From positions 930,001 through 994,000 of the forward strand of contig NZ_VORW01000001.1 of assembly GCF_007997215.1 (NCBI RefSeq): 64,000 nucleotides of DNA, read 5' to 3'. The stretch's first letter is position 1; every line of letters begins with the position of its first letter. Of this stretch, positions 12,148-63,535 are shown piece by piece. A model generated the notes under the pieces. The model saw only the letters and a program-made list of their open reading frames with translations. It had not been told where the DNA came from and did no database searches. A program made the position numbers and the translations under genes. The stretch is from Algoriphagus aquimarinus (GTDB taxonomy: Bacteria; Bacteroidota; Bacteroidia; Cytophagales; Cyclobacteriaceae).

Positions 12148-12151
12148 CTCC

Positions 12152-12664: not shown

Positions 12665-12677
12665 GGCCTTGTAGTTT

Positions 12678-12753: not shown

Positions 12754-12812
12754 ATATGCCCTCCTGTTAATCAAAAAAGATTGAAATGTGGCTTTTTAGT
12801 GTTTTTAGGGCA

Positions 12813-12841
12813 TAAAAAAAGTATTCATCAAGAATACTTTT
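12813..12841 (-). terminator. terminator of the crtZ-merR unit
   Basis: On the minus strand a 9-bp stem AAAGTATTC / GAATACTTT with a 5-base loop is followed by a T-run (A-run at 12814-12820 on the plus strand). It lies just after the regulator's stop codon and separates it from the sigma-crt promoter. Confidence 0.8.
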
Positions 12842-12863
12842 GTTTAATATATTTTAGATTTAT

Positions 12864-13754
12864 CTAAACAGTCTCATGTTCCATTTGAAGTAAAACCTGT
12901 TTTATCTCCTTTGCATACGTAAGCAAACGGAGGTTAGAAGGAATAGAAAGTGATTGGTCTAAAGCTTGAAGACCTGATATGAAAATTTCTGAATTGCGGA
13001 ATTCCTTTCCAAGCATATTCAAATAATCTTGCATTTTATCTCCTGAGGGTGAGGAGGTAATTATCGTAAGCAAATAATCAGGTTGCTGAATCTTATATAC
13101 AGAAATTAAGTCTATTTGAGGAGTACTTTGTCCCAGGTAGATAACCTTATGCCCGTGTTTTTTGATCAGATAGGAACTGAAGAGTATAGATAGTTCGTGT
13201 AGTTCACCTTCTGGAAGAAAAAGCATAAACGTTTTGCCTTGGCTCTTTCCCATTTGCCCATCAATGGCTACAATCAATTTTTGGCGAATCAAATTAGATA
13301 TAAAATGTTCCTGTGCGGGATTGATAGCTCCTGTTTGCCAGAGTACGCCTATTTTGGACAGAAAGGGATAAATCACATCAAGCACGGTTTCTTCGAAACC
13401 AAGCTTAAGTATATTGGTAGAGAGCACCTTCTCAAATCTATCTTCATCCATTTCAATCATACAGATTGTAAGGGCCTGGATCTGATCGTTGTGATCCATC
13501 GATTGATCTGTGAGTCGTATGATTTCCTGAGAAATATCATTGCTGCTCATCGCGGCGATTTTGCTGATCTTAATACCGTGGGTATTCAGCATAGCTACAT
13601 TGAGGATCAACTTCAGATCTACATCATCGTAATAGCGGATGTTTGTATCCGTCCTTTTTGGTTTGAGTAGATTATACCGCTGCTCCCAGATCCTTAGCGT
13701 GTGTGCTTTGATCCCAGAGAGTTGCTCTAAATCCTTTATCGAGTAATTGCTCAC
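12864..13754 (-). CDS. CarH-like MerR regulator with cobalamin-binding domain (probable B12 photoreceptor-repressor)
   Basis: 296 residues. The N-terminal MerR winged helix (about 1-70) contains YSIKDLEQLSGIKAHTLRIW and EQRYNLLKPKRT. A helical B12-cap domain carries the Wx9EH signature (W139, E149, H150) that marks adenosylcobalamin-type CarH sensors. A Rossmann-like B12 domain carries ELHELS with H186 as likely lower cobalt ligand; the usual motif ExHxxG has Ser instead of Gly here. In CarH systems the dark AdoCbl tetramer represses carotenoid genes and light breaks it. Its ATG overlaps the crtZ stop by four bases, so the two are translationally coupled. AdoCbl binding is inferred from motifs only. 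Confidence 0.85.
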   Translation of the reverse strand: MSNYSIKDLEQLSGIKAHTLRIWEQRYNLLKPKRTDTNIRYYDDVDLKLILNVAMLNTHGIKISKIAAMSSNDISQEIIRLTDQSMDHNDQIQALTICMIEMDEDRFEKVLSTNILKLGFEETVLDVIYPFLSKIGVLWQTGAINPAQEHFISNLIRQKLIVAIDGQMGKSQGKTFMLFLPEGELHELSILFSSYLIKKHGHKVIYLGQSTPQIDLISVYKIQQPDYLLTIITSSPSGDKMQDYLNMLGKEFRNSEIFISGLQALDQSLSIPSNLRLLTYAKEIKQVLLQMEHETV

Positions 13755-14197
13755 CTTTCTGTGTCCTTAAAATATTTTTTTGGAACCAAAAACAGTCCAA
13801 ATGATACTGATCCGTCCTTTTCTCTACTATGATGATGCGCTTGATGTGCTTTGAAGATTCCTTTTAGAAAACCAGTTCTAGGTCTATCCAGCCACTTCAC
13901 TCTACGATGAATAAGAACATCGTGAAGGAAGAAATACAGCATACCATAGGTGCTTATCCCTATTCCAATCCAAAACCTATAGTCCAATTCCCCCACTCCC
14001 AAGAATATCAGAAGTACAGCAATACTTCCAAATAGCAGAGAAAACAGGTCATTCAGCTCGAAAAAGGATTCTGAATGCTCATGGTGTGTCTTATGAATAT
14101 TCCACAAAGGCCCATGCATCACATACTTGTGAATCGCCCAACCGGACAATTCCATCAGTACAAAACCTACTATGCTAAAGGCAATCGCTTCAATCAT
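13751..14197 (-). CDS. crtZ: beta-carotene 3-hydroxylase CrtZ
   Basis: A 148-residue membrane di-iron hydroxylase of the fatty-acid hydroxylase superfamily. The histidine boxes are complete: HKYVMHG (H23, H28), HKTHHEH (H35, H38, H39), HDVLIHRR (about 92-98) and HQAHHHSREKDGSVSFG near the C-terminus, which is the CrtZ signature. It adds the 3-hydroxyl to beta rings. It overlaps the CarH-like regulator gene by four bases and is transcribed away from cruF. Note that this pigment gene is coupled to its regulator rather than placed in the main crt operon. Confidence 0.92.
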   Translation of the reverse strand: MIEAIAFSIVGFVLMELSGWAIHKYVMHGPLWNIHKTHHEHSESFFELNDLFSLLFGSIAVLLIFLGVGELDYRFWIGIGISTYGMLYFFLHDVLIHRRVKWLDRPRTGFLKGIFKAHQAHHHSREKDGSVSFGLFLVPKKYFKDTER

Positions 14198-14362
14198 CTG
14201 TATAACAACCTCAGAGGGTCTTTTTTTGTTTTAGTAATTTTATAGCCACCACGAACACGTAGTCCCGATAACTATCCGGACGCAGAGGCCACAACTTTGT
14301 ATTTTAATTAATCCCTATGTAACTGCAAGGTTGTTTTTAAAATCATTTCATTTAGAATCAAA

Positions 14363-14408
14363 GGGCTGAAAGCCCAAGATACTAAAGCCCAGGCTGAAGG
14401 GCTGGGTT
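14363..14408. repeat. intergenic hairpin pair, REP-like
   Basis: GGGCTGAAAGCCC (14363-14375, stem GGGCT/AGCCC) and a second imperfect hairpin AGCCCAG ... CTGGGTT (14386-14408) lie in the gap between cruF and crtZ. Similar hairpin pairs are widespread intergenic repeats in Cytophagales genomes as I recall; only this copy of this sequence type was seen in the window. No T-run follows, so it is not a plain terminator. Confidence 0.5.
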
Positions 14409-14462
14409 ACAAATCGAAATTCAATTAGTAAAGCTCTGCAAGAGCGAAACACTCAAAATTGT

Positions 14463-15131
14463 TCAAAGCTCAAGCGTGAAATTAAGAATCGTAAAGAAGA
14501 GGATCATAGCAACCAGCATCCAAGCTGCAAGTGGATTCTCCCTATCGAAATTAGCCTTTCTGTAAATCAAGTGAATCAAAAAGGCCACTCCAAACCATGC
14601 GAAATAATTTCCCGCAGGGATAATTTCAAACTTCCAATACCAAAAGTCCAAGGCTACTGCCACAGGCTCCATGATGTAATCTATGACGGTCATCGCCGTA
14701 GCTCCCAGCAACGCGGCATAATAGTCATTGTCCGTTGCCTTGTGGAAAACTGTCCCCGTCAGATAAACCAAAATAAACCAGTTCACCCCGATCACAATTG
14801 GAACGTCCCAGAGTTTGGGACCCAAAGTGGTACCATATACATAGTCACCAAATAAGTACCCCGTGTGAATTCCTAAGATCTCAGCTCCAAATCCTATCCA
14901 AAACGCTGCTGTGGCAAAGATGGGAAAAGCATCAGACCAGCCGCGATGGTAACCTAGGAGGATTACCAATGAAAGCAACAACTGAGCTGGAGTAAGCTTC
15001 AGAAAAAGCTCTCTATACTCAGGCAAACTCAATCCAATCACCCCCACCGCATACAATACAACCACTGCGATTTTTGCGATAATTAATCGCTTATTCTGCG
15101 CCTCTGGGGGAACTTGGGCTATCATATGCAT
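14463..15131 (-). CDS. cruF: carotenoid biosynthesis membrane protein, CruF-like (1',2'-hydratase family)
   Basis: 222 residues with about seven hydrophobic segments. Family features include GFGAEILGIHTGYLFGDYVYGTTLGPKLWDVPIVIGVNWFI and TAMTVIDYIMEPVAVALDFW, as in the DUF422/CruF family. CruF adds water across the 1',2' double bond of the psi end, giving a 1'-hydroxyl. With CrtYcd, CrtW and CrtZ this fits synthesis of a monocyclic carotenoid of the flexixanthin type. It is a single gene, divergent from the DUF4286 gene and separated from crtZ by about 265 bases with REP-like hairpins. The precise reaction is inferred from family and context. Confidence 0.82.
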   Translation of the reverse strand: MHMIAQVPPEAQNKRLIIAKIAVVVLYAVGVIGLSLPEYRELFLKLTPAQLLLSLVILLGYHRGWSDAFPIFATAAFWIGFGAEILGIHTGYLFGDYVYGTTLGPKLWDVPIVIGVNWFILVYLTGTVFHKATDNDYYAALLGATAMTVIDYIMEPVAVALDFWYWKFEIIPAGNYFAWFGVAFLIHLIYRKANFDRENPLAAWMLVAMILFFTILNFTLEL

Positions 15132-15242
15132 AATTAGGTAAGCTTTGGTTTAGGTAAATTCTATTTTTAGCGTTGGGATTCCTAACTTTGAAATCGCAAA
15201 TCTGTTTGCAAAAAAACGAAATTCCAGCCAAAATCCCCCGAT

Positions 15243-15548
15243 ATGATTCTTTACAACATCACTTTCACCGTTTCCAATGAGATCGAAGAGGATTTTGTCC
15301 AATGGATGAAAGGCACTCACATTCCTGATATTTTCGCAACTGGATTATTTGTTGAGCATAAATTCTTCAGGCTTCTCAATAGCCCAGATGACAACGTGAC
15401 GAATTATGCTGTGCAGTTCTTTGCAGAAAACACGAAAAAGCTAATCGAGTATGAAAGCCGGTTCGCAACTGCGCTTCGCTATGAAACCCAGGCTCGCTAT
15501 GGTGAGAAGGCAATTCCTTTCCGAACATTGATGGAGTCGGTGGATTAG
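15243..15548 (+). CDS. DUF4286 family protein
   Basis: A 101-residue small soluble protein. The start MILYNITFTVSNEIEEDFVQWM, then HIPDIFATGLFVEHKFFRLL and a central TNYAVQFFAENTKKLIEYE, match the DUF4286 family of Bacteroidetes, which looks like a ferredoxin-like alpha/beta fold. No function is known. It is transcribed alone, divergently from cruF. A possible -7 box TAACTTTG lies at 15183-15190, but I saw no matching -33 element. Confidence 0.75.
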   Translation: MILYNITFTVSNEIEEDFVQWMKGTHIPDIFATGLFVEHKFFRLLNSPDDNVTNYAVQFFAENTKKLIEYESRFATALRYETQARYGEKAIPFRTLMESVD

Positions 15549-15591
15549 GGCCTAGAAAGCAGATATTAGTTTTAATCCTTTACTAATAATT

Positions 15592-15776
15592 CAACCCCTT
15601 TGGGGTTGCCTTGATAAATCATTATTTCATTTAGCCACGGGTTGCACCCGCGGTTATTGAAAAGTTTGATCCCTTCGGGATCTTCAATTTGAAGATTTAA
15701 AATCGAATGTTTATAGATTCAATTGCATGACCACAAAGTGGTCAAACCTATCAATAACCATGGGTTCAACCCATGG
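15592..15776. repeat. cluster of palindromic repeats, BIME-like inverted pair
   Basis: The 423-base gap before the lipoprotein array holds several hairpins: CAACCCCTTTGGGGTTG (15592-15608), CCACGGGT/ACCCGCGG (15635-15653, one mismatch), GATCCCTTCGGGATC (15668-15682), GACCACAAAGTGGTC (15729-15743) and CCATGGGTT/AACCCATGG (15758-15776). The segment 15635-15660 is the reverse complement of 15751-15776 with four mismatches in 26, and the inner hairpins also mirror each other (both contain TCAAAC or GTTTGA beside the stem). The whole is therefore two REP-like units facing each other. No transposase gene is adjacent. Confidence 0.75.
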
Positions 15777-15971
15777 ATTGAGTGACCAATCCAAGACATC
15801 CCCAAGATCTCATTCCCTCCACTCCCCCAACCTGCATAAATATCAAATCAGTATATCATAATTTCCAAGCCTCATTTTATTGCAGTTCCCAACTATTTTT
15901 TTGATTTATTAACATTCTAGGATCGCTTTTTTAAGACAGTTTATTTAGTTTTATAGCTAACCCTACTGTTT

Positions 15972-17084
15972 ATGAAGAGATTATTTTTTTACTCTACTCT
16001 AATTGTTTTTCTGTATTCCTGCCAAACTAAAGAGTCATCATCATCCGCCTATAGCACTAACTCGCTCGAAAACTTTTCTTTTTCTGTTGACACCCTTGTG
16101 TTAGATGTAGGAGCAGAGATTTTTAATTCTAACGGTTATTCCAGTTATGATCTAAGTGAAGATGGAAATAATCTTTTCCTATTCTATGAACCTGAAAAGG
16201 AAATGCATGAATATGATATGGCTGAAAAGAAGTTAGTTTCTCGTCATCCCTTCGAAACCGATGGACCAAATCTAATTCCTTCTTATTTCAACTACTTTCA
16301 GGCGCTGCCAAATGATGAATTTTTTATGACTGACGTTGTCAGATCAGGGATTTATAGACTTGATGGAAAAAAGCTAACGTCTTATAAGCTTCGAGTGGAT
16401 AACATTTCAGGATTAAATCTGGATGCCTCTTTCCAGCTCACAAAAAACAGCTATATCAGCCCTGATAAGCAGACCCTCGTGAGTCTCCCCTCAAAATATG
16501 GCGCTCCACCCGCTGGACTTGCCGTCATAGACTTGAAATCCATGTCTGGTAAAATCCTAGATCTACCCGCGCTGGAGATGACAGAAAATTATCAGGTAAT
16601 CTTCGAAGAGGAAATGTCTCAATCAGGTGATTTCATAACTACGCAGTTTCTCCACGATCAATTTATCATCTACAGCGGAGCCACTTCAGCTATCTATACC
16701 TACGATTGGAAGCGAAATTCTCTGAAACTTCATACGTTCCCACATACCCTAGTTGCGAAGTCCAAAACAGGTGAATTCCCAACCAAGATAAACTCCGAAG
16801 AGCGAAGAAAGGAAGTATCCAAACTGATGCAAAAGCAGATCACTTTTGGAAAATTTTACTGGGACGAGACACGCAAAAATTATTTCCGAATTGGAACAAC
16901 CAACGAAGACTATACAAAAGCCTACCTATTCTCTTATGATGAGAATTTTGATCTCACGGGCGAAACACTCATTCCAGATTTCTACTATATCCCTTACATG
17001 GAATTCTTTCATGCAGGAAAACTGTACAGCTTTATCAATGTGGGAGAAGAACCCGCTTTAGTTGAATTCACTTTTGATTTTTAA
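15972..17084 (+). CDS. lipoprotein 1 of a seven-gene paralogous array (DUF4221-like)
   Basis: 370 residues with a lipoprotein signal (MKRLFFYSTLIVFLYSC, C17). After a short serine-rich linker the mature domain begins with the array signature FSVDTLVLDVGAE. It continues through an EGP-type motif (FETDGPNLIP), a late GKFYWDETRKNYFRIGT and a C-terminal GKLYSFINVGEEPALVEFTF. The strand pattern resembles a beta-propeller. I assign DUF4221 from memory. This first gene is the most divergent of the first three and ends FTFDF. It lies downstream of the REP-like cluster; no clear promoter was found. The next gene starts six bases later. Function unknown; probably an outer-membrane or periplasmic lipoprotein. 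Confidence 0.78.
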   Translation: MKRLFFYSTLIVFLYSCQTKESSSSAYSTNSLENFSFSVDTLVLDVGAEIFNSNGYSSYDLSEDGNNLFLFYEPEKEMHEYDMAEKKLVSRHPFETDGPNLIPSYFNYFQALPNDEFFMTDVVRSGIYRLDGKKLTSYKLRVDNISGLNLDASFQLTKNSYISPDKQTLVSLPSKYGAPPAGLAVIDLKSMSGKILDLPALEMTENYQVIFEEEMSQSGDFITTQFLHDQFIIYSGATSAIYTYDWKRNSLKLHTFPHTLVAKSKTGEFPTKINSEERRKEVSKLMQKQITFGKFYWDETRKNYFRIGTTNEDYTKAYLFSYDENFDLTGETLIPDFYYIPYMEFFHAGKLYSFINVGEEPALVEFTFDF

Positions 17085-17090
17085 GAAACC

Positions 17091-18230
17091 ATGAAAAAAC
17101 TCCTTACGATTTCCATTTTAGCACTTCTTTCTGCCTGTGGCAGTAAAAAATCAGAATCTACTGAACAGAAAAACATTCTAGAAAACCTCACTTATACTGT
17201 AGATACCCTTGTAGTGGATCCAGGCGAGGAAATCATTGACTTGTCTGGAGGATTGAGGCTTTCTAACCTCTCAGACGACAAAAGCAAACTCTATCTTTTT
17301 ACCCAAAAAGAGCATCAAATCGCCATTGTCAATCTAGACCAATTGGAGTTGGAGGAGTTTCTGCCTTTTGAAGTGGAAGGACCCAATGGCATTGGACAGT
17401 ATGTAGGAACCATGCAGAAGCTTGACGGCGAAAAGTTTATGTTTTCAAGTTTTCAGACTTCGGGGATTTATGATAGAAATGGAGTCAAAATCGAAGATCT
17501 CAAGCTTAAACCTACAGATTTTGAAGGAGTGGACATCGAAGGTGATGGGCCGATGAATTATAAACTGATGCAATCTGCGAATGGCAAGTGGCTTTTCTCG
17601 CTTCCAGGCGATTTCATGGAAGGATCCAGAGATTTGGCCGTTTTAGATCCTGCAAACAGCTCTGGAAAGATCCTCGATATTCCAGCGATGGATAAAGCGT
17701 CAGAGTTTAGGATCATTCTCCAAAGCACCGAGATGATGTCGATTTATGTAGAAGATGTCAACCTACAAGAATTTGACGGGCAGGTATTCATCAGTACCTC
17801 TGTCACTTCAGATATTTACCGCTATGATTACAAGCAGGACTCATTGCAGCTTTTCACTTTCCCGCATCAGCTAGTGCCGCCAGCCAAAACAGGAGCCATC
17901 AAAAACAAAGTGTCCTCTGAAGATGAGTGGAGGAGCGAAATGGAAAAAGCATCAAGCCAGATAGGCTTTGAAAAATTGCTTTGGGATGATAGCAGCAATA
18001 GATTCTTCAGGTTTGGCAGAAAATTACTCCCAAAAGAAAACGACGAAGCTCCTACGAAAGCTGAAGTGTATCTCTTCGCTTACGATGCTAATTTGAAGTT
18101 GATCGGTGAGAAATTTCTGGAAGATGTTGACCAGATTCCTTCTTACCCTTTCTTCAAAGACGGCAAGCTCTATTCCTATGTCAATGTCGAAGACGAGCTA
18201 GGCTTCGCAGTATTCACTTTTAATTTTTAG
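17091..18230 (+). CDS. lipoprotein 2 of the array (DUF4221-like)
   Basis: 379 residues, lipobox LLSAC (C16), then a charged linker (GSKKSESTEQK). The core begins ENLTYTVDTLVVDPGEE and has VNLDQLELEEFLPFEVEGPNGIG, LLWDDSSNRFFRFGRK and the ending GKLYSYVNVEDELGFAVF. It is closest to gene 3: the two agree strongly at both ends, and the last about 70 bases are nearly identical in DNA, while the middle has diverged. It is separated from genes 1 and 3 by six bases each, with similar junction sequences (stop, GAAAC, two bases, start). Charged residues right after the lipid cysteine are compatible with a Bacteroidetes surface-export signal. Confidence 0.78.
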   Translation: MKKLLTISILALLSACGSKKSESTEQKNILENLTYTVDTLVVDPGEEIIDLSGGLRLSNLSDDKSKLYLFTQKEHQIAIVNLDQLELEEFLPFEVEGPNGIGQYVGTMQKLDGEKFMFSSFQTSGIYDRNGVKIEDLKLKPTDFEGVDIEGDGPMNYKLMQSANGKWLFSLPGDFMEGSRDLAVLDPANSSGKILDIPAMDKASEFRIILQSTEMMSIYVEDVNLQEFDGQVFISTSVTSDIYRYDYKQDSLQLFTFPHQLVPPAKTGAIKNKVSSEDEWRSEMEKASSQIGFEKLLWDDSSNRFFRFGRKLLPKENDEAPTKAEVYLFAYDANLKLIGEKFLEDVDQIPSYPFFKDGKLYSYVNVEDELGFAVFTFNF

Positions 18231-18236
18231 GAAACT

Positions 18237-19379
18237 ATGAAAAAACTAATCCCCGTTCTATTTCTAATTGCTTCCTGTGGTGAAAAAGGAAGTACTGAAA
18301 GTGCTGAATCAGGCAATGTCCTCGAGAACCTGACTTACTCGGTGGATACCCTAGTGGTCGATGCTGGAGGCGAGCTTCTTTCAATAGAGAATTATTTGCA
18401 ATTGGAAGGATCATCCAGCCTCTCTGAGGATCAAAAATTTTTCTACGTTTTTAATAATAAGGATCATACCCTAGCCGTGGTAGATCTCGATCAATTGAAA
18501 CTTGTGGAAGTTTTGCCTTTCGAAAAGGAAGGCCCAGATGGAGTGGGTGAATACATAGCAGGATTGCAGGCGCTACCTGATGGGAGATTTTTGATTACTG
18601 GATTTGAAAAGGCGGGGGTATTTAATAGAGAAGGTAAAAAACTGGATGATATTCCACTTATAGCCGAGAAATATGAAGGGATTGAAACAGATCTTCCTAT
18701 TTATCTAAAGCTGACTAGGTCTGCAGAAATGAATTTGCTCTTCTCTTTTACTGGGTACAGTGATTTTGGCGAAAAAAAACTAGTTCTCATCAATCCTTCT
18801 CAAAAGTCAGGGAAGACCATCAAACTTCCTGAAATAGAAAAAGCCCAAGAGTTTGATATCACTTTAATAAGTAATCAGGGCAGTATAAGTTTGATGACAC
18901 CATTATACATCCAGGAGCTCAATGGCCAAGTATATGTGTCCAATGGTATTTCCTCAGGTGTTTATACTTACGACTACCAAGCTGACTCCATGAGATTAAT
19001 CACCTTTCAGCATCAATTAGTCCCATCTGCAGTTTCGGGTACTGTCAAAAACGAAGTTTCTTCGCGAGAAGAGTTTAATTCTGAAGTTGAAAAAATAACT
19101 ACTCAAATTGCCTTTGAAAAGCTCCTTTGGGATGAAAAGTCCAATCATTTTTTTCGAATTGGAAGGAAAACCATTCCCAAGATTAAAAAGGATACTCCCT
19201 ACAAATCGGAAGTCTATCTATTCATCTATGATGAGAATCTCAATTTATTGGGAGAAAAATTATTAGAGGATCTAACCAACCCTCCTCGTTTTTATTTCAT
19301 GAAAGACGGCAAACTCTATTCCTACGTCAATGTCGAAGACGAGCTGGGCTTCGCGGTTTTCACTTTTGATTTTAACTAA
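18237..19379 (+). CDS. lipoprotein 3 of the array (DUF4221-like)
   Basis: 380 residues, short signal with lipobox IASC (C14). The core shows ENLTYSVDTLVVDAGGE, VDLDQLKLVEVLPFEKEGPDGVG, GVFNREGKKLDD, LLWDEKSNHFFRIGRK and ends GKLYSYVNVEDELGFAVFTFDF. It is the nearest relative of gene 2. The final roughly 70 coding bases differ from gene 2 at only about six positions, which suggests recent duplication or gene conversion of that patch. Nine bases separate it from gene 4, where the C-terminal signature of the family changes from AVFTF to FVRIKP. Confidence 0.78.
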   Translation: MKKLIPVLFLIASCGEKGSTESAESGNVLENLTYSVDTLVVDAGGELLSIENYLQLEGSSSLSEDQKFFYVFNNKDHTLAVVDLDQLKLVEVLPFEKEGPDGVGEYIAGLQALPDGRFLITGFEKAGVFNREGKKLDDIPLIAEKYEGIETDLPIYLKLTRSAEMNLLFSFTGYSDFGEKKLVLINPSQKSGKTIKLPEIEKAQEFDITLISNQGSISLMTPLYIQELNGQVYVSNGISSGVYTYDYQADSMRLITFQHQLVPSAVSGTVKNEVSSREEFNSEVEKITTQIAFEKLLWDEKSNHFFRIGRKTIPKIKKDTPYKSEVYLFIYDENLNLLGEKLLEDLTNPPRFYFMKDGKLYSYVNVEDELGFAVFTFDFN

Positions 19380-19388
19380 CAACCAACC

Positions 19389-20537
19389 ATGAGAAAACTA
19401 TTCCCATTTCTAGGACTAGCGCTTTTGGCTTCTTGCGGAGAGAAAAGTACTTCTGAATCCGCCAACTCCAGTATTCTAAACTTCACCGTAGAAATAGATA
19501 CCGTGCAGGTAGACCCCGGCGAGGAGCACTTCATCTACCTATCGAACTACCTCAATACTGCTACGGTCAGTTCCGACAAAAAAACACTTTACAACTTCAA
19601 CGCCACCGTGCCCGAACTTGAAGTAATTGATCTCGATAAGTTGACGCTCACCGAGGTGATCAAACTCGAAAATGAAGGCCCAACAGGAATTGGAGCCGCC
19701 AATGCCTATATCCCGATGATGGATATGACTGATAATGGCGACCTATACCTGAATACTTGGTCGTATATGATCAAGCTAAACGCGGCCCGTGATCAGGTGA
19801 GCAAGTATTGGTTTACCGCGGACTCTTTGAAAGGAGACACTATTACCGAACTGGAAAAAATATATCCTGATGGATTTATGGCTGATGACGGGAAATTCTT
19901 CTACAGCACCTATGGCTCAGTGGACAATAGCCCAAAGAAAGGCATAGCGATAGTAAATCTCAGCACCATGGAGCTAAAGAAAGTGCCGATGGATATTTTT
20001 GAGAAAATCGATAAGTTCTCCATCGTATTTAGCCCAGAGGCGAATAGTAAAATGTCTTTAGCTGAGACGGTTTTTTTTGTTCCATTTGACAACAACATTC
20101 TCATTTCCTCCACTGCCTTCAATGAAGTCTTTACCCTAGATCTCTCAAATGGGACTGTAGCACAGAAGTCCTTTCACTCCGAACTGACCGATGATGCCAA
20201 GAAAGGTAACTATGAGAAAAGAGCCAATTCCCGAGAAAATCTTTTTGAACTCAACAAGGAGAAGGTGAAGGAAGTGACTTTTGGTAAGCTGCACTTTGAT
20301 GATCAAAACGAGAAATTGTGGCGATTCAGCACCTCACTTGACCGCATGATCGGAGATTCTACAGCATACCAATCCGTGCTGACCATTTTTGATAAAGACC
20401 TAACTCAGCTTCATGAGCAGAAAGTGAGCTACTCACCGATGAGTTCACTATCCTTTTTCAAAGAAGGCTCACTTTATTCTTACATCAACCTCGAAGACGA
20501 ACTTGGCTTCGTCCGAATCAAACCCACTTATGAATAA
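19389..20537 (+). CDS. lipoprotein 4 of the array (DUF4221-like)
   Basis: 382 residues, lipobox LLASC (C16). The core has FTVEIDTVQVDPGEEHFIYLSNYL, VIDLDKLTLTEVIKLENEGPTGIG, a late VTFGKLHFDDQNEKLWRFST and the ending LYSYINLEDELGFVRIKP. It is the first member of the second subgroup (genes 4-7), which share DTVxVDxGE near the start, EKxKEVTFGKL-type segments and an FVR(I/L)KP end. Its stop codon overlaps the start of gene 5 by eight bases (ATGAATAA), so translation is probably coupled. Confidence 0.78.
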   Translation: MRKLFPFLGLALLASCGEKSTSESANSSILNFTVEIDTVQVDPGEEHFIYLSNYLNTATVSSDKKTLYNFNATVPELEVIDLDKLTLTEVIKLENEGPTGIGAANAYIPMMDMTDNGDLYLNTWSYMIKLNAARDQVSKYWFTADSLKGDTITELEKIYPDGFMADDGKFFYSTYGSVDNSPKKGIAIVNLSTMELKKVPMDIFEKIDKFSIVFSPEANSKMSLAETVFFVPFDNNILISSTAFNEVFTLDLSNGTVAQKSFHSELTDDAKKGNYEKRANSRENLFELNKEKVKEVTFGKLHFDDQNEKLWRFSTSLDRMIGDSTAYQSVLTIFDKDLTQLHEQKVSYSPMSSLSFFKEGSLYSYINLEDELGFVRIKPTYE

Positions 20538-21696
20538 AATCAGACTACTTACTCCAATTATTCTAGCAGTTTTAGCCAGTTGCGGAACTAAAGAAGGTGC
20601 AGAAAATATGCAAGGCACGGCCATTGATTTCTCCTATCAGCTAGACACGGTGATGGTGGATGCGGGGGAGAACTTCATTTACTTGAATAGTTCTCTAATT
20701 AACTCCGGGGTTTCACAAGACGGAAAATATCTGTATAATTTCAAAACTGGTGTAAATCCAACAGGCATAGAAGTTATTAATCTGGACAATCTGAAACTGG
20801 AACGGGTCATTCCAATGAGCGTAGATGGACCCAATGCAATTCGATCTCCCTACATGTCCAATATTTATATGCTTGCTGATGGGACTTTTTACCTATCGGA
20901 CAATTATGAAGTTTATCATTTCGATCAGGAAGGAAACAAGCTTTCTACTATGGTCTATGCAAAGCAGGAGTTTGAAGGTGAGAGACTTCCGGAAGGCAAG
21001 AGGATCCAGTTAAATGAAACGCTTTCTAAGGATGAGAAAACCATTGCGACATTGTATGGTGGTGAGAAAATGGAAGATTCTGCAGACGGGCTGGCGCTGT
21101 TTGATCTGGAAAATAAGCGTGTGAAGTACAAACAGTTAGGCTTATTTAAGGAATTGGACAAGTATCAAACTATTTTCTATTATGAGAAAGTACACCCGAT
21201 GAATATGCTTATGGCTGACATCAGCCTTCTGATGAAAAACGATAGTTTGTTGTTTTCAAATTCCGCTCAAAACAAGATTTATTTCTACAACCTCGCTACA
21301 GATTCCATTTCTTCTAAAACTTACTCCAGTAAATTCACCAGCCAAGAAGCTAAGGGAAATTACCCACCTCGCTCTGACTCTGAAGAGGAATTTCAAGAGA
21401 TTCTCAATGAGAAAGACAAAGAAGTTAGCTATGGCAAACTGTTTTTTGATGAGCATAACGACGTCTATTGGCGCTTTGCCAAGGAAATGGATCATATGAA
21501 AGGAGACACAATCCAGTACAAAACCGTCCTAACTGCCTTTGATCCAGAGTTCAATCAACTACACGAAGAACTGCTCCCTTCAGATTTCGTGCTTCCCTAC
21601 AAGTACTTCGCCCGAAAGGGGATGATTTATACCTTTTTGAATATCGAGGATGAACTGGCCTTTGTAAGGCTTAAACCAAAATTTGAACATGACTAA
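20530..21696 (+). CDS. lipoprotein 5 of the array (DUF4221-like)
   Basis: 388 residues from the ATG at 20530. This start gives a proper lipoprotein signal (MNKIRLLTPIILAVLASC, C18); an earlier in-frame start at 20503 lies inside gene 4 and would spoil the signal. The core has FSYQLDTVMVDAGENFIYLNSSL, VINLDNLKLERVIPMSVDGPNAI, KEVSYGKLFFDEHNDVYWRF and the end FLNIEDELAFVRLKP. It overlaps gene 4 and gene 6 by eight bases each, with the same arrangement (ATGA, base, TAA). Confidence 0.78.
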   Translation: MNKIRLLTPIILAVLASCGTKEGAENMQGTAIDFSYQLDTVMVDAGENFIYLNSSLINSGVSQDGKYLYNFKTGVNPTGIEVINLDNLKLERVIPMSVDGPNAIRSPYMSNIYMLADGTFYLSDNYEVYHFDQEGNKLSTMVYAKQEFEGERLPEGKRIQLNETLSKDEKTIATLYGGEKMEDSADGLALFDLENKRVKYKQLGLFKELDKYQTIFYYEKVHPMNMLMADISLLMKNDSLLFSNSAQNKIYFYNLATDSISSKTYSSKFTSQEAKGNYPPRSDSEEEFQEILNEKDKEVSYGKLFFDEHNDVYWRFAKEMDHMKGDTIQYKTVLTAFDPEFNQLHEELLPSDFVLPYKYFARKGMIYTFLNIEDELAFVRLKPKFEHD

Positions 21697-22834
21697 ATAC
21701 GTATACTTACTGTTGGCAATAGCTTTTATAAGCTGCTCTTCAGAAAAGAAATCCGAGGCAGAAAACAATGATGATTTTAAGTTCTCCTACGCCGTGGATA
21801 CCGTGATGGTGGATGCCGGGGAGCATTTCTTTTTTCTCAACGAGGATTTGGAATTAGCTGATGTTTCCCCTGACCGGAAACTGCTCTATAATCTAAATCC
21901 AAAAACGTTCCTACTGGAGATAGTGGACTTGGACAATCTCAAATTAGAGAAGACAGTCCAATTAGAAAAAGAAGGTCCTGATGGAATTGGGCTCCCTTAT
22001 TATGGAAAAATTCAGGTATTGGAAAATGGTAACATCTGTTTATTTGGTCAGTTTAAAATCCACATTGTCACTGAGCAGGGTAAGCTTGTTAAAACCATAG
22101 AACTTGATCAAATCAAAATTAAAAATAACGATCAAAAAGAGGAAGAGAAAATTGGATGGAACAGCGTACTTTCTGATGACGGCAAACTACTCGCGAGCAC
22201 ACTAGTCAACTTTGATTACAAAACACCAGCAAAAGGAATCGTAGTGATAGAGTTAGAGACTGACTCGATTAAGTACATTCCTATGAACTTATTTCAAGAG
22301 CTTAAGCAATTTGAAATAATTCATCAAGAGGGAAATGCACCTGGTATTATTTCCGGAGAATCTACTTATTTGAGTTTCATTGGCGATAAGCTGATTGTCT
22401 CCTCCTCGGCATATAACGATGTGTATCGCTATAATACCAGCTCTGATAGCCTTTCTCACTACAGTTTTAAAGCAAGCCTTACTGACAACGAAAAAATTCG
22501 AAATTTCCCTAACGAAGTGCACTCAAGTAAAGAGTGGACTGATGCTGAGAAGGCAAAAAACGAACAAGTTTCTTTCCAAGAGTTTTTGAAATTGCCTGAG
22601 CAAAATATTTTCTGGAGAGTGAGTACCGACAAAGACCGTATGATTGCAGATTCTGTTGTTTTCAAGCAGGTCGCCACTTTTTTTGATGCTGATTTTAAGA
22701 TGCTCAACGAGCAAGAATTGGAGAATTTTCATAGTTCCAGAAAGCCATTTTTCAAAGATGGGATGCTTTACAGCTTTATTAATATTGAGGATGAGATGGC
22801 TTTTATAAGACTGAAACCTATATTAGAAGAATGA
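21689..22834 (+). CDS. lipoprotein 6 of the array (DUF4221-like)
   Basis: 381 residues from the ATG at 21689, which gives the lipoprotein signal MTKYVYLLLAIAFISC (C16); a TTG two codons earlier is less likely. The linker after the cysteine is strongly charged (SSEKKSEAENNDD). The core has FSYAVDTVMVDAGEHFFFLNED, VDLDNLKLEKTVQLEKEGPDGIG, a shortened late motif VSFQEFLKLPEQNIFWRV and the end FINIEDEMAFIRLKP. The late motif lacks the KLxFD pattern of genes 4 and 5. It overlaps gene 7 by four bases (ATGA). Confidence 0.78.
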   Translation: MTKYVYLLLAIAFISCSSEKKSEAENNDDFKFSYAVDTVMVDAGEHFFFLNEDLELADVSPDRKLLYNLNPKTFLLEIVDLDNLKLEKTVQLEKEGPDGIGLPYYGKIQVLENGNICLFGQFKIHIVTEQGKLVKTIELDQIKIKNNDQKEEEKIGWNSVLSDDGKLLASTLVNFDYKTPAKGIVVIELETDSIKYIPMNLFQELKQFEIIHQEGNAPGIISGESTYLSFIGDKLIVSSSAYNDVYRYNTSSDSLSHYSFKASLTDNEKIRNFPNEVHSSKEWTDAEKAKNEQVSFQEFLKLPEQNIFWRVSTDKDRMIADSVVFKQVATFFDADFKMLNEQELENFHSSRKPFFKDGMLYSFINIEDEMAFIRLKPILEE

Positions 22835-24000
22835 GTAAGTATCTGACTTTTCTTTTTTTGATAGCGATGATGAGTTGCTCGGCCAAAGAGGAAAAGGAGG
22901 AAGTAGTGGTTCCTAAAAGCGATATCGAGTTTAGCTATACCATAGATACCATCAGGATAGATGGGGGAGGGACCAAGCATTACTTGGGCATGAATCTCAC
23001 GATGGCTGATTATTCTGCTCAAGAAGGACTTTTATACAATCTGGAGCCTGAAACGGGGCGTGTGGAGGTGATAGATGTAGAAAAACAAAAGCTGCTGCGC
23101 TTGATCCAGTACGATATGCGGGGTCCGAATAGTATTAAGGAGTATTATCCTTCCGGTATCAAGAAAACTATCCTGGGAGAGACATTTTTCAGAGATTTCT
23201 ATGTGATCCATCGGATGGATTCAGCGCGAAAGAAAATAGACACCTACAAGCTTGATAATAGTTCCCTGAAAGGTGATCGGCTGCCCTATGAGACCAATAT
23301 AGATGGATCCGGTGAAATCGCTGCTGATGGGTCTTATTACGTGGGGCTTTACGGTAACTTCAAACCCAAAGGTGAGATTTTGGGAGTAGCTAAAGTGAGG
23401 TTCTCGGATAAATCCATGAAGCTTATTCCTATTGATTTTTGGGATCAGCTGAAAGAGTATACCATTACTGTAAATTATGATATAGGCAGAAGAAGCAGTT
23501 CAACTGAGATGAAATTTCTCACATTGAATGGCCCTGATTTTATTTTGTCCACATCCGCCAGTAATGAGCTATGGTACTACATTTCTGAAATTGACAGCGT
23601 CGTCCACAGATCGTATCACAGTACGATCACTTCAGACAAGAAAAGTGGGGAGTATAGAAAAGAAGTTACCACCCATGCGACATTCGAGTACTGGTCTCAG
23701 CGGAAGAATCAGGAGGTTACGTTTGGGCCATTGGTCAAAGATCCGGATTCCCAACTCTTCTATCGCTACAGCCGCGAGCTGGACAAGAGCAACCCGGAAA
23801 GTGCTAGTTATGTCTATGTATTGACGGTTTTCAACGAAAAGCTAGACCAAATCCATGAGGAGAAACTCAGGAGCAGGATTTCAATTTTGGGTAAATACTT
23901 CGCTGGAAAGACCTTCGTGCACAAGGGTATGATCTATTCCTATATCAATCTGAATGATGAAATGGCCTTTGTACGGTTGAAACCAGATTTCTCTAAATGA
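22831..24000 (+). CDS. lipoprotein 7, last gene of the array (DUF4221-like)
   Basis: 389 residues, lipobox MMSC (C16), then SAKEEKEEVVV. The core has FSYTIDTIRIDGGGTKHYLGMNL, IDVEKQKLLRLIQYDMRGPNSIKEYYP (the EGPDG motif has become RGPNS), VTFGPLVKDPDSQLFYRYSREL and the end YINLNDEMAFVRLKPDF. It is the most divergent member of the second subgroup. The operon ends here: a bidirectional hairpin terminator follows at 24049-24080. No enzyme motif, SusD-like domain or regulator is found in or beside the array. Confidence 0.78.
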   Translation: MSKYLTFLFLIAMMSCSAKEEKEEVVVPKSDIEFSYTIDTIRIDGGGTKHYLGMNLTMADYSAQEGLLYNLEPETGRVEVIDVEKQKLLRLIQYDMRGPNSIKEYYPSGIKKTILGETFFRDFYVIHRMDSARKKIDTYKLDNSSLKGDRLPYETNIDGSGEIAADGSYYVGLYGNFKPKGEILGVAKVRFSDKSMKLIPIDFWDQLKEYTITVNYDIGRRSSSTEMKFLTLNGPDFILSTSASNELWYYISEIDSVVHRSYHSTITSDKKSGEYRKEVTTHATFEYWSQRKNQEVTFGPLVKDPDSQLFYRYSRELDKSNPESASYVYVLTVFNEKLDQIHEEKLRSRISILGKYFAGKTFVHKGMIYSYINLNDEMAFVRLKPDFSK

Positions 24001-24048
24001 GAGAGTATTAGCATTTATTCAGCCCTTTGTAGTTTAAAAAATATAGAC

Positions 24049-24080
24049 AAAAAAAAGAGGGCCGAAGCCCTCTGTTATTT
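24049..24080. terminator. bidirectional terminator between the lipoprotein array and the FKBP genes
   Basis: A 7-bp GC-rich stem AGAGGGC / GCCCTCT with loop CGAA (24056-24073) is flanked by an A-run on the left and a T-rich run (GTTATTTTTT) on the right, so it can stop transcription from both sides between two convergent units. Confidence 0.85.
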
Positions 24081-24081
24081 T

Positions 24082-24639
24082 TTAGTCCATTCCTTTGAAT
24101 ACCACATCGAATATCAATATCGAGTTGGCTGGAATTTTAGGTTGCGTTTCAGAATTCTGATAGCCAAGAGGCGAGGGTATAATGAGTTTTGCTTTAGAAC
24201 CCGATCTGAGTCTAAGGAAGCCCCTATCCCATCCGGGAATAACACTGCCTGAGCCTAGAACGAAACTGAGTAGATTATAATTTCTATTTTCATCATAGAT
24301 ATCATTATCTATTGCTACTTGTTCAATATTGGTATCAAATACAGAACCATCGCTCATCAATGAACCTGCATATTTGGTATAGATAATATTTCCGTTATTC
24401 GGGCGAGAGCCTATTCCTTCTTCTTGTACGATGACCACGACGCCGCTTGCAGTATGGATGCGGTATAAGCTGTCTATCTCTGCGGTTTCAAGGTATTTCA
24501 CGATCAAAAGGCTGTCCTTTGTCAGATTCCCCGCATAGTCATATACAGGTCCAGTGTCGTATGGATTCTTTGCATCGCAACTGGCGAATACTATTGCTAT
24601 CAGTAGAAAGGCGAAAATACTAAGTCTATAAATACTCAT
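24082..24639 (-). CDS. FKBP-type peptidyl-prolyl isomerase lipoprotein
   Basis: 185 residues with a lipoprotein signal (lipobox FASC, about C20). The C-terminal FKBP domain (about 75-185) contains IIYTKYAGSLMSDGSVFDTN, FVLGSGSVIPGWDRGFLRLRSGSKAKLIIPSPLGY and a final ILIFDVVF, the usual FKBP core with GWD-x-G and PSxLGY. It probably acts as a folding catalyst or chaperone in the periplasm. It is the last of three FKBP lipoprotein genes, two bases after the second. One such protein, GldI, is needed for gliding in flavobacteria; whether any of the three is GldI cannot be told here. Confidence 0.85.
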   Translation of the reverse strand: MSIYRLSIFAFLLIAIVFASCDAKNPYDTGPVYDYAGNLTKDSLLIVKYLETAEIDSLYRIHTASGVVVIVQEEGIGSRPNNGNIIYTKYAGSLMSDGSVFDTNIEQVAIDNDIYDENRNYNLLSFVLGSGSVIPGWDRGFLRLRSGSKAKLIIPSPLGYQNSETQPKIPANSILIFDVVFKGMD

Positions 24640-24641
24640 AA

Positions 24642-25202
24642 TTACTGCTGTGGTCCTTGAGTTACCTCTATAAGATTTAATTCAAACATAATAGGAGCGT
24701 TTGATGGGATCGGTACAACCCCATTCGTTCCTTGTTGACCATATGCATATCTAGATGGGATAAATACAGTGGCTTTATCACCTTGTTCCATTTGACCCAC
24801 ACCAAATTCAAAACCTGGAATCAATAGATTGAAACCTACTGGAAACTCAAGGGGAGTATAAACTCTAGTCGATGCAAATATTCCCCCATCCACTGCCACC
24901 TGCTTGATAGAGGTATCAAATACTTTATTTGAAAGCAATTTGCCGATATAATCTACCTTCAAGGTGTCTCCGTTAGTTACACCCATCCCTGAATCAGAGA
25001 CTTCTTGCCAAATTATTCTCAAACCGGAGGCTTCATCATGAAATTCCTTAACATTAACGATAGTAGTAGTATCAATATAAGCATTGATTGCTGCTTTATC
25101 ATTAGCTAGTATTACCTCGTCCGTAGCTTCTTCGTCAATACAAGATGCCATTGCGAAACTGCCTGCAATCAGGCTTAATATGGCAAATATTCTAATTTTC
25201 AT
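24642..25202 (-). CDS. FKBP-type peptidyl-prolyl isomerase lipoprotein
   Basis: 186 residues, lipobox MASC (about C21). The FKBP domain (about 75-182) contains GDTLKVDYIGKLLSNKVFDT, FPVGFNLLIPGFEFGVGQMEQGDKATVFIPSRYAYG and PIMFELNLIEV. Compared with its neighbours, the GWDEG motif is GFEFG. It lies between the other two FKBP genes, two bases before one and 47 after the start of the other's tail, on the same strand. A periplasmic or outer-membrane folding role is inferred from the family. Confidence 0.85.
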   Translation of the reverse strand: MKIRIFAILSLIAGSFAMASCIDEEATDEVILANDKAAINAYIDTTTIVNVKEFHDEASGLRIIWQEVSDSGMGVTNGDTLKVDYIGKLLSNKVFDTSIKQVAVDGGIFASTRVYTPLEFPVGFNLLIPGFEFGVGQMEQGDKATVFIPSRYAYGQQGTNGVVPIPSNAPIMFELNLIEVTQGPQQ

Positions 25203-25249
25203 CGTCGTTGGTTTTGTATTAGTTACTGGATATACTTACAGTACGTCCA

Positions 25250-26173
25250 TTACTGAACTTCTGCTACATCCACATCGAAAACAAGTACTGAATTAGCAGG
25301 AATCATGTCTCCAGCTCCATTTTCTCCATAAGCTAGTGGAGAAGGGATGATAAACTTGCCTTTTGATCCTTTTTTTAACAATAATAAACCTTCGTCCCAT
25401 CCTGGGATTACTTGACCCATACCTACAGTCACAGGAAGTGGCTCATATGGTCTGCCTTCGTTAAACATATTGTTTTCTCTTGCTATGGATTCCACAGAAG
25501 TGTCAAATAACGTTCCGTCAAGCAAGTAACCTGCATAATTCACATGCATGGTAGTACCTACAGAAACAGGCTCGCCAGTTCCTTCTTCTTCGATCACATA
25601 GTAAAGTCCGCTTTCTGTTTTCTGAGCAGCTAGACCTTTTTCTTTGATGTAATCTTGAATGATTTTCTCTTCTTCTATTATTCTCTCTTTAGCTCTTTCA
25701 CCTTTTTTCACTTCCTCAGCAGCCATCACTTTTTCAAAGTATGCCTGAATAGCTTCTTCGTTCATGATTTCAAATGCTCCCAAACGAACTTTTACTATAT
25801 CTTCTTTATTCACTGTTGGAGGCGCATTTTCTCCATAAATATTTTTAATAGTAGTTTCAAAAGCGATGCTATCTCCTTTGCGAAGGCTAAGGAAGATCTC
25901 ATCCATACCGGTCTCAACTGGCATAGAATCGTTGGCCATTATATAGCCAGGGAAAGGATAATCTGCCGTAGAATAGATCACAGAATCTGATGCAGTAGTG
26001 ATCTCAAGGTTGTAAAGTAAAAACTCACCGTTTGGAGCTTTTTCATTTCCCTCTTTTACATAGGTATATTCGATACCGTCTTTTTCAGTGACTTTAGTTT
26101 TTTTACATGAAGTCAAGATGCTCGCTCCAACCAAGAGAGCAAGGATTGCCAAAAGGCTTTTTGAATTTTTCAT
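25250..26173 (-). CDS. large FKBP-type isomerase lipoprotein with extra N-terminal domain
   Basis: 307 residues from the ATG at 26173, which gives a lipoprotein signal (MKNSKSLLAILALLVGASILTSC). A more upstream ATG at 26224 would overlap nrnA and hide the signal. The N-terminal half (about 30-140) is a degenerate FKBP-like domain (PGYIMANDSMPVETGMDEIF, LRKGDSIAFETTIKNIYG). A charged helical linker rich in E and K follows (about 145-200). The C-terminal FKBP domain is complete (MHVNYAGYLLDGTLFDTS, VIPGWDEGLLLLKKGSKGKFIIPSPLAYGENG). The two-domain layout with a helical linker resembles Mip/FkpA-type chaperone isomerases. It follows nrnA on the same strand. Confidence 0.85.
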   Translation of the reverse strand: MKNSKSLLAILALLVGASILTSCKKTKVTEKDGIEYTYVKEGNEKAPNGEFLLYNLEITTASDSVIYSTADYPFPGYIMANDSMPVETGMDEIFLSLRKGDSIAFETTIKNIYGENAPPTVNKEDIVKVRLGAFEIMNEEAIQAYFEKVMAAEEVKKGERAKERIIEEEKIIQDYIKEKGLAAQKTESGLYYVIEEEGTGEPVSVGTTMHVNYAGYLLDGTLFDTSVESIARENNMFNEGRPYEPLPVTVGMGQVIPGWDEGLLLLKKGSKGKFIIPSPLAYGENGAGDMIPANSVLVFDVDVAEVQ

Positions 26174-26220
26174 AAAGGATAAGTGATTTTTCAAGGTAAT
26201 GTGGTGGTCTTCGAAGGTCA

Positions 26221-27264
26221 TCAATCTGCGGTAACAGGAACAGAACGGTATAAATCATCCTGGTTCTCTTCCACTAAAGATTCGAATCGCTCTACGGTAT
26301 CTCTTAGGCTTAATGTAGACTTGCCTCCTGAGGCATTTTTATGTCCACCTCCATCGAAATATTCTGCTGCAAACTTATTCACAGCTACTTCGCTGGATGA
26401 TCTAAAGGAGATTTTTATACCGTCTTCGCGTTCCGAAAATAAGGCTGCCAACTTTATCCCATCCAAAGATAAAGCATAATTGACCAAACCTTCGGTATCG
26501 CCTGTGCGGCTTTGATATTTTTTAAGATCTTTTTTGCTGATCGCAAAATAGGCCATGTGAAGATCTTCACAGACCACCAGACGACGACTGATCGCAAAAC
26601 CGATAAATTTCAATCTATTCACCGAATTGGAATCATAGATCCAATTGGCAATCTGAGAGGTATCTGCGCCCAAGTCCAGTAATTCCGCGACCACGAGGTG
26701 CACGTTCTTAGTGGTATTGGGATGCCTGAATCCACCAGTATCTGTCATGATTCCTGCATAGAGACACTCTGCGATGTCTTTGTCTAGAAGTTTCTCATCT
26801 CCTAGCTGCACGACCAGTTCATATACCAATTCACAGGTAGCGGCGGCCTCTGTACTCCAAAACTTGAAGTCAGCAAAATCCTCCGGATCCTGATGATGAT
26901 CGATATTGATTACGAGTGCATCCGACTTGCGGATCATTTCGCCTAATTCATTGACCCTTTTTAAGACAGAGAAATCCAAACAGAATATAAGATCCGCTTC
27001 ATTTAACTTTTGGGTGGCAATCTCTGTGTGCTTAGGATTACTGAAATCCAGCACAGAATCATTGCCTTTCATCCAATTAAGAAATGAAGGGTAATCCGTT
27101 GGCGTCACCACAGTTACCTCATGTCCCTTCTTGAGTAGGTAGTTAGCCATTCCCAATGAAGAACCCAATGCATCGGCATCGGGTTTGACGTGAGTGGTAA
27201 TGAATATTTTTTTGGGTGAAGATATCTCTCTCTTAAACGAGGCTAAAGCTTCCATTTTATACAT
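26221..27264 (-). CDS. nrnA: DHH/DHHA1 phosphoesterase, NrnA-like (oligoribonuclease / pAp phosphatase)
   Basis: 347 residues. The DHH domain shows the metal-site motifs THVKPDADALGSSLG (H25, D29, D31), LIFCLDFSVLKRV and NIDHHQDPEDF (about 118-128). The C-terminal DHHA1 domain has FDGGGHKNASGGKS (about 302-315). NrnA-type enzymes degrade short RNA oligonucleotides and dephosphorylate 3'-phosphoadenosine 5'-phosphate. The start may be 27264 or the ATG three codons later. It is transcribed divergently from ndk and followed by the FKBP genes. Confidence 0.88.
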   Translation of the reverse strand: MYKMEALASFKREISSPKKIFITTHVKPDADALGSSLGMANYLLKKGHEVTVVTPTDYPSFLNWMKGNDSVLDFSNPKHTEIATQKLNEADLIFCLDFSVLKRVNELGEMIRKSDALVINIDHHQDPEDFADFKFWSTEAAATCELVYELVVQLGDEKLLDKDIAECLYAGIMTDTGGFRHPNTTKNVHLVVAELLDLGADTSQIANWIYDSNSVNRLKFIGFAISRRLVVCEDLHMAYFAISKKDLKKYQSRTGDTEGLVNYALSLDGIKLAALFSEREDGIKISFRSSSEVAVNKFAAEYFDGGGHKNASGGKSTLSLRDTVERFESLVEENQDDLYRSVPVTAD

Positions 27265-60156: not shown

Positions 60157-60157
60157 T

Positions 60158-61369: not shown

Positions 61370-61393
61370 GAATAAAGATGATTTTGTGCTGAA

Positions 61394-63533: not shown

Positions 63534-63535
63534 AA

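What the first reader, a model, noticed from the sequence alone, without database searches (positions are those of the whole stretch)
15972..24000. Seven tandem paralogous lipoproteins in one 8-kb operon
Seven genes of 370-389 codons, all with lipoboxes, share landmarks (V/IDTxxVDxGE near the start, an E/DGPxG-type motif, a late WRF/FRF segment and a YSYxNxEDEL end) yet differ widely between them. Gaps are 6-9 bases or overlaps. Such arrays arise by repeated duplication with selection for variation, as in surface receptors, self/non-self markers or immune evasion. No enzyme, transporter or toxin gene accompanies them, so the role is open.
Basis: partly seen in the sequence, partly recalled or inferred. 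Interest (0 to 1): 0.75.

Follow-up and report, generated by a model that had tools for sequence, protein, structure and literature searches.

The report
Bank of partner-less propeller lipoproteins
A marine Algoriphagus bacterium carries seven head-to-tail genes for propeller-shaped lipoproteins whose relatives elsewhere sit next to, and vary together with, exported cysteine-rich peptides, so the row may be a swappable bank of peptide-recognising, perhaps protective, proteins without the peptides.

Summary
Window 15972-24000 holds seven co-directional DUF4221 (PF13970) lipoproteins, 21-51% identical, with junctions of 6-9 bp or 4-8 bp overlaps. The fold is a propeller; the best solved match is 3s9j, itself DUF4221. 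The family is known; its function is not. In 19 Algoriphagus genomes the locus holds 1-23 copies. The 5'-to-3' order of lineages is mostly kept (409 of 448 comparisons), but copies turn over fast (mean share 18%, range 0-100%). Some species pairs are near-identical in the propeller body and differ at the ends, which indicates recombination. dN/dS is 0.07-0.29, so positive selection is not shown.

The functional lead lies elsewhere. In C39/ABC/HlyD/VKOR export clusters, DUF4221 genes often follow genes for cysteine-rich peptides with double-glycine leaders. Peptide-core similarity tracks partner similarity (r 0.72, 0 of 5000); leader and VKOR similarity do not. The array loci hold no such peptide candidate.

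Best reading: a bank of orphan immunity-type lipoproteins, exchanged as cassettes. Recombining array and family-level peptide partnership are well supported. Immunity by these seven is inferred, about even odds.

The parts
15972..17084 (+). W1, DUF4221 lipoprotein, 370 aa (5'-half clade)
   Evidence: PF13970 E 1.5e-50; tree clade with W2, W3
17091..18230 (+). W2, DUF4221 lipoprotein, 379 aa (5'-half clade); 85% identical to copy 3 of A. winogradskyi
   Evidence: PF13970 E 4.8e-62
18237..19379 (+). W3, DUF4221 lipoprotein, 380 aa (5'-half clade); no copy above 52% identity in the other 18 genomes' arrays
   Evidence: PF13970 E 4.1e-60
19389..20537 (+). W4, DUF4221 lipoprotein, 382 aa (3'-half clade)
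   Evidence: PF13970 E 2.9e-52
20530..21696 (+). W5, DUF4221 lipoprotein, 388 aa; overlaps W4 by 8 bp (ATGAATAA); modelled; codons 105-270 are 99.0% identical to A. aquimarinus copy 5, 91.0% outside
   Evidence: PF13970 E 7.8e-59; AlphaFold2 pLDDT 90.2
21689..22834 (+). W6, DUF4221 lipoprotein, 381 aa; overlaps W5 by 8 bp (ATGACTAA)
   Evidence: PF13970 E 2.1e-56 (given from 21692, one codon short)
22831..24000 (+). W7, DUF4221 lipoprotein, 389 aa; overlaps W6 by 4 bp
   Evidence: PF13970 E 3e-48
24056..24073 (.). terminator-like hairpin after the last gene, found on both strands
   Evidence: consensus scan only
15243..15548 (+). DUF4286 gene, left-hand neighbour of the array
   Evidence: PF14114; its homologue is the left neighbour in 14 of 22 records
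24082..26224 (-). three FKBP-type (peptidyl-prolyl isomerase) genes, right-hand border here; the right border differs between species
   Evidence: PF00254

Best explanation
The row is a bank of envelope lipoproteins, each a beta-propeller of the DUF4221 family (six blades by my count), written as what looks like one operon. It evolves as an ordered cassette array: lineages mostly keep their 5'-to-3' place, copies are gained and lost, and stretches of the propeller body pass between species by homologous recombination. In this family the propeller recognises an exported, cysteine-rich peptide. In clusters with the exporter, such a peptide gene is followed by its own propeller, and the two vary together. 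The Algoriphagus row has the propellers without the peptides. The most likely job is therefore orphan immunity: each copy binds and neutralises, or keeps off its target, a peptide toxin made by neighbouring relatives. SHOWN by sequence: family, predicted fold, array, order, recombination, and adjacency and co-variation with peptides in clusters elsewhere. INFERRED: that the peptides are toxic, that DUF4221 binds the peptide core, that binding protects, and that the array copies do the same as their cluster relatives.
Against: The 15 peptide-paired DUF4221 proteins lie outside the array clades; only one of them (L137) is among the 25 best hits to array copies that were printed, at 36%. One exporter-cluster DUF4221 (L077:5281-6456) does fall inside an array clade, but a second VKOR gene lies between its peptide and it. 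No toxicity of any of these peptides is known here. The bacteroidetocin paper (passages read) reports producers that inhibit themselves and no immunity gene, so exported peptides of this phylum need not have one. 22 of 42 peptides are followed by proteins other than DUF4221. dN/dS is low. Of 11 gene pairs tested for clustered differences, 6 had the similar stretch in the body, 2 at the 3' end and 3 showed none. Leader similarity is weakly correlated with the non-DUF4221 partners (r 0.186, 207 of 5000).
Confidence: 0.5

Rival explanations
1. The propellers are receptors, sensors or surface carriers for secreted peptides (signal reception, peptide display or uptake), not immunity proteins. The array then widens the range of peptides that the cell can perceive or hold.
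For: Core-partner co-variation fits any specific binder. Some non-array DUF4221 genes sit within four genes of a LytTR regulator (8 of 65 loci) and a histidine kinase (9 of 65).
Against: The array has no kinase or uptake gene inside it. A place directly after the peptide gene is common for immunity genes (recalled).
Confidence: 0.25
2. A variable surface-antigen or adhesin array (phage, protist or kin-recognition target) unrelated to the peptides.
For: Lipoprotein signal, many divergent copies, fast turnover and inter-species exchange.
Against: Low dN/dS. No relative confirmed in viral contigs (one pattern scan, 55 matches, none confirmed). It does not explain the peptide partnership of the family.
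Confidence: 0.15
3. Ordinary lineage-specific expansion of nutrient- or envelope-related lipoproteins with neutral turnover in a recombining genus.
For: DUF4221 is concentrated in this bacterial family (81 of 196 genomes, against 20 of 392 in the phylum sample), and selection is purifying.
Against: 12 of 19 genomes keep 10-23 copies or pieces at the locus with a mostly kept order, and in 6 of 11 tested pairs the similar stretch lies in the propeller body.
Confidence: 0.1

Closest known systems
DUF4221 family (PF13970); solved member BVU_1028, PDB 3s9j
   Different: Named only as a domain of unknown function. Ordered arrays and peptide pairing were not met in my paper searches; no held paper contains the word DUF4221.
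Orphan immunity arrays of Bacteroidales (rAID systems; abstract of PMC12247911 read)
   Same: Rows of immunity-type genes away from the toxin, diverged from the cognate copies beside it.
   Different: rAID guards against type VI effectors, includes SUKH-domain proteins and is recombinase-associated. Here the proteins are propeller lipoproteins, the putative partners are exported peptides, and the ten flanking proteins scanned include no recombinase.
Bacteroidetocins and other C39-exported peptides of Bacteroidota (PMC6671954, PMC10352776; passages read)
   Same: Leader peptides and peptidase/transporter export; thiol oxidoreductase in the bacteroidetocin region.
   Different: The passages report that no immunity protein was recognised; in most clusters here a dedicated protein follows the peptide.
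Staphylococcus aureus lpl lipoprotein cluster (PMC4470592, start of abstract in a listing)
   Same: Tandem paralogous lipoproteins in one locus.
   Different: Unrelated host group; family and fold not compared here.

Membership tests
DUF4221 / PF13970 | score over Pfam's curated cut-off (23.4 bits) | tested here: met
   165.5-210.8 bits for all seven
DUF4221 / PF13970 | same fold as the solved member 3s9j | tested here: met
DUF4221 / PF13970 | lipoprotein signal with lipobox cysteine | tested here: met
   C18 invariant in 124 sequences; all seven begin with a signal and cysteine. A strict lipobox pattern missed W1 and W7
Orphan immunity array (rAID-like) | tandem homologues of a toxin-adjacent partner, without the toxin | tested here: inconclusive
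   Family-level homologues are peptide-adjacent and array loci hold no peptide candidate, but array and peptide-paired copies are different clades and toxicity is unknown
Orphan immunity array (rAID-like) | association with a recombinase gene | tested here: not met
   No recombinase among the ten flanking proteins scanned; a 148-aa IS200-like protein (recognised by eye, one sequence seen) borders the array in three relatives
Orphan immunity array (rAID-like) | protection against the partner toxin | not testable with these tools
   needs an experiment
TIGR04149 leader-peptide family (for the partner peptides) | score over the NCBIfam cut-off (25 bits) | tested here: inconclusive
   three peptides scanned: 18.8, 19.3 and 25.6 bits; one of three over the cut-off

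The most novel reading that the evidence does not exclude
DUF4221 propeller lipoproteins are a missing immunity family for double-glycine-leader, cysteine-rich peptides of Bacteroidota, and Algoriphagus keeps a genus-wide library of peptide-less immunity genes in one ordered row, refreshed by swapping propeller bodies between species through homologous recombination.
Probability: 0.4. Interest if true: 0.85.

Novelty: new variant of a known kind. Interest (0 to 1): 0.72.

Why it matters
Two papers on peptide toxins and modified peptides of Bacteroidales say that no immunity protein was recognised in their clusters (passages of PMC10352776 and PMC6671954). A family that follows exported peptide genes and co-varies with the peptide core, but not with the leader or the processing gene, is a concrete candidate. 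Large partner-less arrays of the same family would then be an immune repertoire of environmental bacteria, readable from genomes and directly testable. The array also offers a natural case of cassette evolution with no integrase or mobile element inside the row of the window: mostly fixed order, exchangeable middles.

Tried and rejected
Positive selection on the copies: not found; dN/dS 0.07-0.29 in the 17 pairs computed. Phage or plasmid carriage of the family: none confirmed (one pattern scan, 55 matches, none confirmed, tblastn of W2 against plasmids, no match). RNA element: none over the gathering score in 12000-27000. Loop variability on one face of the propeller: loops on the D-A/B-C side are only slightly more variable (mean entropy 2.73 and 2.85 bits) than on the other side (2.45 and 2.41), so I claim no variable face (blade assignment is mine from the DSSP string). 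General neighbours of non-array copies: a DUF4143 AAA gene (9 loci), a histidine kinase (9) and LytTR regulator (8) recur among 65 loci; in 8 of those 65 my profile found no DUF4221 at the score used. Lower silent divergence of array copies than of flanks (36 of 38 independent pairs, mean 0.41 against 0.63) is partly an effect of choosing pairs at 70% identity or more; I rely on the within-gene contrasts. The 11 pairs were picked by me: win_07/aqui_12 (619 of 2000), aqui_09/chor_13 (511) and wino_02/yeom_04 (179) show no clustering, and win_02/wino_03 (41) and win_04/yeom_10 (4) are most alike at the 3' end, not in the body. The codon excess at the 5' end could partly be start-region codon bias. 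An early strict pattern found 8 leader-like ORFs in 883 kb, 4 of them just upstream of DUF4221; the later profile found 42 in the enlarged set and missed the pair L077:13452-14630. NCBIfam gave no family over its cut-off for the six of seven window proteins scanned (W5 left out).
Full report
OBSERVATION. The window comes from an Algoriphagus genome: the named relatives are Algoriphagus species. Seven ORFs at 15972-24000 on the + strand all belong to PF13970, DUF4221. They are 21-51% identical in pairs, carry a lipoprotein signal, and are joined by junctions of +6, +6, +9, -8, -8 and -4 bp. The genome has 11 DUF4221 matches: these seven and four elsewhere.

THE ARRAY ACROSS THE GENUS. Of 52 genomes of the genus at least 90% complete, 48 have DUF4221, with 0 to 33 copies. 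In the family sample 81 of 196 have it, in the phylum sample 20 of 392. I read the region in 19 genomes: 202 copies or pieces, 1 to 23 per genome (A. yeomjeoni's fifteenth copy lies 4.3 kb off). Species names of G handles (G009, G014, G017, G018, G019, G021) are inferred from matching contig lengths. Of 183 junctions 167 are at most 12 bp, 61 overlap, and 43 overlap by exactly 8 bp; in the window the 8 bases are ATGAATAA and ATGACTAA, a start and a stop in one. The left neighbours (DUF4286, carotenoid genes) are the same in 14 of 22 records. Four records (G010, G014, G016, G023) have the row beside other genes, recognised by eye as an ebo-type cluster; L045 and L046 start too close to the array to tell, though one search finds the same flank in both genomes. 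The right border differs.

HOW IT EVOLVES. On a maximum-likelihood tree of 174 copies the seven window genes need seven changes, so no two are sisters. On a second tree (194 of 202 rows, pieces left out) the copies fall into two large clades of 90 and 100 rows (SH-aLRT 97 each) and four others. W1-W3 are in one and W4-W7 in the other; most arrays run mainly from the first clade to the second, some are mixed. Of 448 comparisons of orthologue order 409 agree. Yet on average only 18% of the smaller array has a reciprocal best hit of 55% or more (120 array pairs, range 0 to 100%); close pairs such as AGSA1/NG3 and G652/A. marinus share many copies. A. aquimarinus, the closest of ten relatives by flank DNA, is 89% identical over 6458 bp. 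It has counterparts at 94, 91 and 91% for W5, W6 and W7, a 69% match for W4, a 44% best match for W2 and no reciprocal hit for W1 and W3. So this is an old shared repertoire with fast gain and loss, not a recent local burst.

RECOMBINATION. At shared amino acids, codons agree more than in the body of the same genes at the 5' end (1.42 times) and the 3' end (1.34-1.36 times) for same-clade copies in one genome (505 pairs at 25-45% identity); between genomes the factors are 1.14 and 1.23-1.25. The within-genome 3' value (0.584) exceeds the between-genome value (0.531) and all 500 label shuffles. Between species some pairs show a near-identical middle. A. winogradskyi copy 6 and A. aquimarinus copy 3 are 98.8% identical over codons 103-265 and 84.2% elsewhere; W5 and A. 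aquimarinus copy 5 are 99.0 and 91.0% (each 0 of 2000 permutations). The flanks of these species pairs differ at 0.69 and 0.40 of silent sites. Of 11 pairs tested, 6 have the similar stretch in the body, 2 at the 3' end and 3 show none. Over 36 independent pairs with pS under 0.5 the middle has lower silent divergence than the ends in 27 (Wilcoxon p 0.0008). I read this as exchange of body stretches between species by homologous recombination, with 3' ends partly levelled inside each genome. A DUF4221 gene 73% identical to an array copy of A. yeomjeoni sits alone in a genome of another genus. dN/dS is 0.07-0.29 for the 17 pairs computed, against 0.01-0.10 for flanking genes where it could be computed (18 of 21).

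WHAT THE FAMILY DOES. One of the four non-array copies of this genome (L051) lies between a peptidase-C39/VKOR gene and a row of C39 peptidase, ABC exporter, HlyD, LanC-like and glycosyltransferase genes. Directly in front of it is a 69-aa gene with a double-glycine leader and a cysteine-rich core; three such peptides score 18.8, 19.3 and 25.6 bits against TIGR04149 (cut-off 25). The VKOR protein occurs in 64 of 295 family genomes (E at most 1e-20). I fetched 20 regions with it, five of them (L133-L137) because DUF4221 had already been seen on the same contig. In all loci scanned, 42 leader-peptide candidates were found, none of them in 456 kb of array loci. The next gene (150 aa or more, same strand, within 900 bp) is DUF4221 for 16 of 42 (15 different genes), VKOR for 3, none for 1, and other proteins for 22. 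Ten of those 22 were scanned: four match PF17170 (6-bladed propeller) over its cut-off, one is thioredoxin-like, and five have no match over a cut-off. Two of the unmatched groups align with DUF4221 by profile (probability 88 and 95%). In the 15 loci fetched for the VKOR hit alone (L138-L152), 6 of 27 peptides, in 6 loci, are followed by DUF4221.

CO-VARIATION. From the 42 I dropped peptides whose next gene is VKOR, missing or more than 350 bp off, cores under 25 aa and exact duplicates, which left 35 pairs (r 0.741, 0 of 5000; DUF4221 only, n 14, r 0.787, 0 of 5000). With near-duplicate partners dropped too, 28 remain: core similarity tracks partner similarity (r 0.719, 0 of 5000), leader similarity does not (r 0.078, 644 of 5000). 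DUF4221 pairs alone (n 10) give r 0.688 (1 of 5000); other partners (n 18) give r 0.77 (0 of 5000), with a weak leader signal there (r 0.186, 207 of 5000). VKOR similarity, a proxy for species and cluster kinship, has r -0.049 with the partner, and the partial correlation is 0.719 (0 of 5000). Peptides of one core group had the same partner family in 27 of 27 comparisons (chance 0.16; 35 pairs, close copies included). So the partner is matched to the mature peptide, as an immunity protein or a specific receptor would be.

LINK TO THE ARRAY, AND ITS WEAKNESS. In L133 (another genus) four adjacent DUF4221 genes without peptide candidates, and a fifth 1.7 kb further, stand directly beside a peptide cluster. 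In G016 an exporter-cluster DUF4221 (L077:5281-6456) falls inside an array clade (18 rows, 17 of them array copies, support 1.0; best identity 36%), though a second VKOR gene lies between it and the peptide. Against this, the 15 peptide-paired DUF4221 proteins lie outside the array clades, and only one of them (L137, 36%) is among the 25 best hits to array copies that were printed. Transfer of the function to the array is therefore an inference at the level of the family.

VERDICT. Family known, structure of a member known, function unknown. New here, as far as 10 searches of an open-access library show (no held paper contains 'DUF4221'): the ordered, recombining arrays and the peptide partnership. 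The best reading is a bank of orphan immunity-type lipoproteins (0.5); a peptide receptor or carrier is the main rival (0.25). The closest system that I name is rAID orphan immunity (abstract of PMC12247911), from which it differs in protein family, in the presumed weapon and in lacking a recombinase among the flanking genes scanned.

Noticed in passing
L053, L064-L067, L089, L093, L094, L108 (non-array DUF4221 loci): DUF4221 genes recur within four genes of a LytTR response regulator (8 of 65 loci) and a histidine kinase (9 of 65), in 4 loci also with what looks by eye like a TonB-dependent receptor; several genera.
   Followed up: partly
L052:5402-6998 (this genome, C11): A non-array DUF4221 gene overlaps a 137-aa lipoprotein-like gene with a CxxC motif and no Pfam match.
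   Followed up: no
window 14335-14454 and 15592-15781: Left of the array: a stretch that matches many other places in the relatives' genomes, and small palindromes. A 148-aa IS200-like protein (by eye, one sequence seen) lies between DUF4286 and the array in G009, G017 and L041.
   Followed up: partly
window 58783-63994: Genes that look by eye like an ebo cluster; in G010, G014, G016 and G023 the DUF4221 gene or row sits beside such genes instead of the carotenoid genes.
   Followed up: partly
arrays of A. halophilus (copies 7-8), A. marinus (1-2), G652 (6-7), G016 (3-4): Copies split into two ORFs, so inactivation may be part of the turnover.
   Followed up: no
L146:8915-10054: A non-DUF4221 partner of a leader peptide has a weak match to Imm51 (E 0.0012, 19.1 bits, below the cut-off of 29.8).
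   Followed up: no
L097:5739-6875: An array-type DUF4221 gene, 73% identical to A. yeomjeoni copy 1, stands alone in a genome of another genus.
   Followed up: partly
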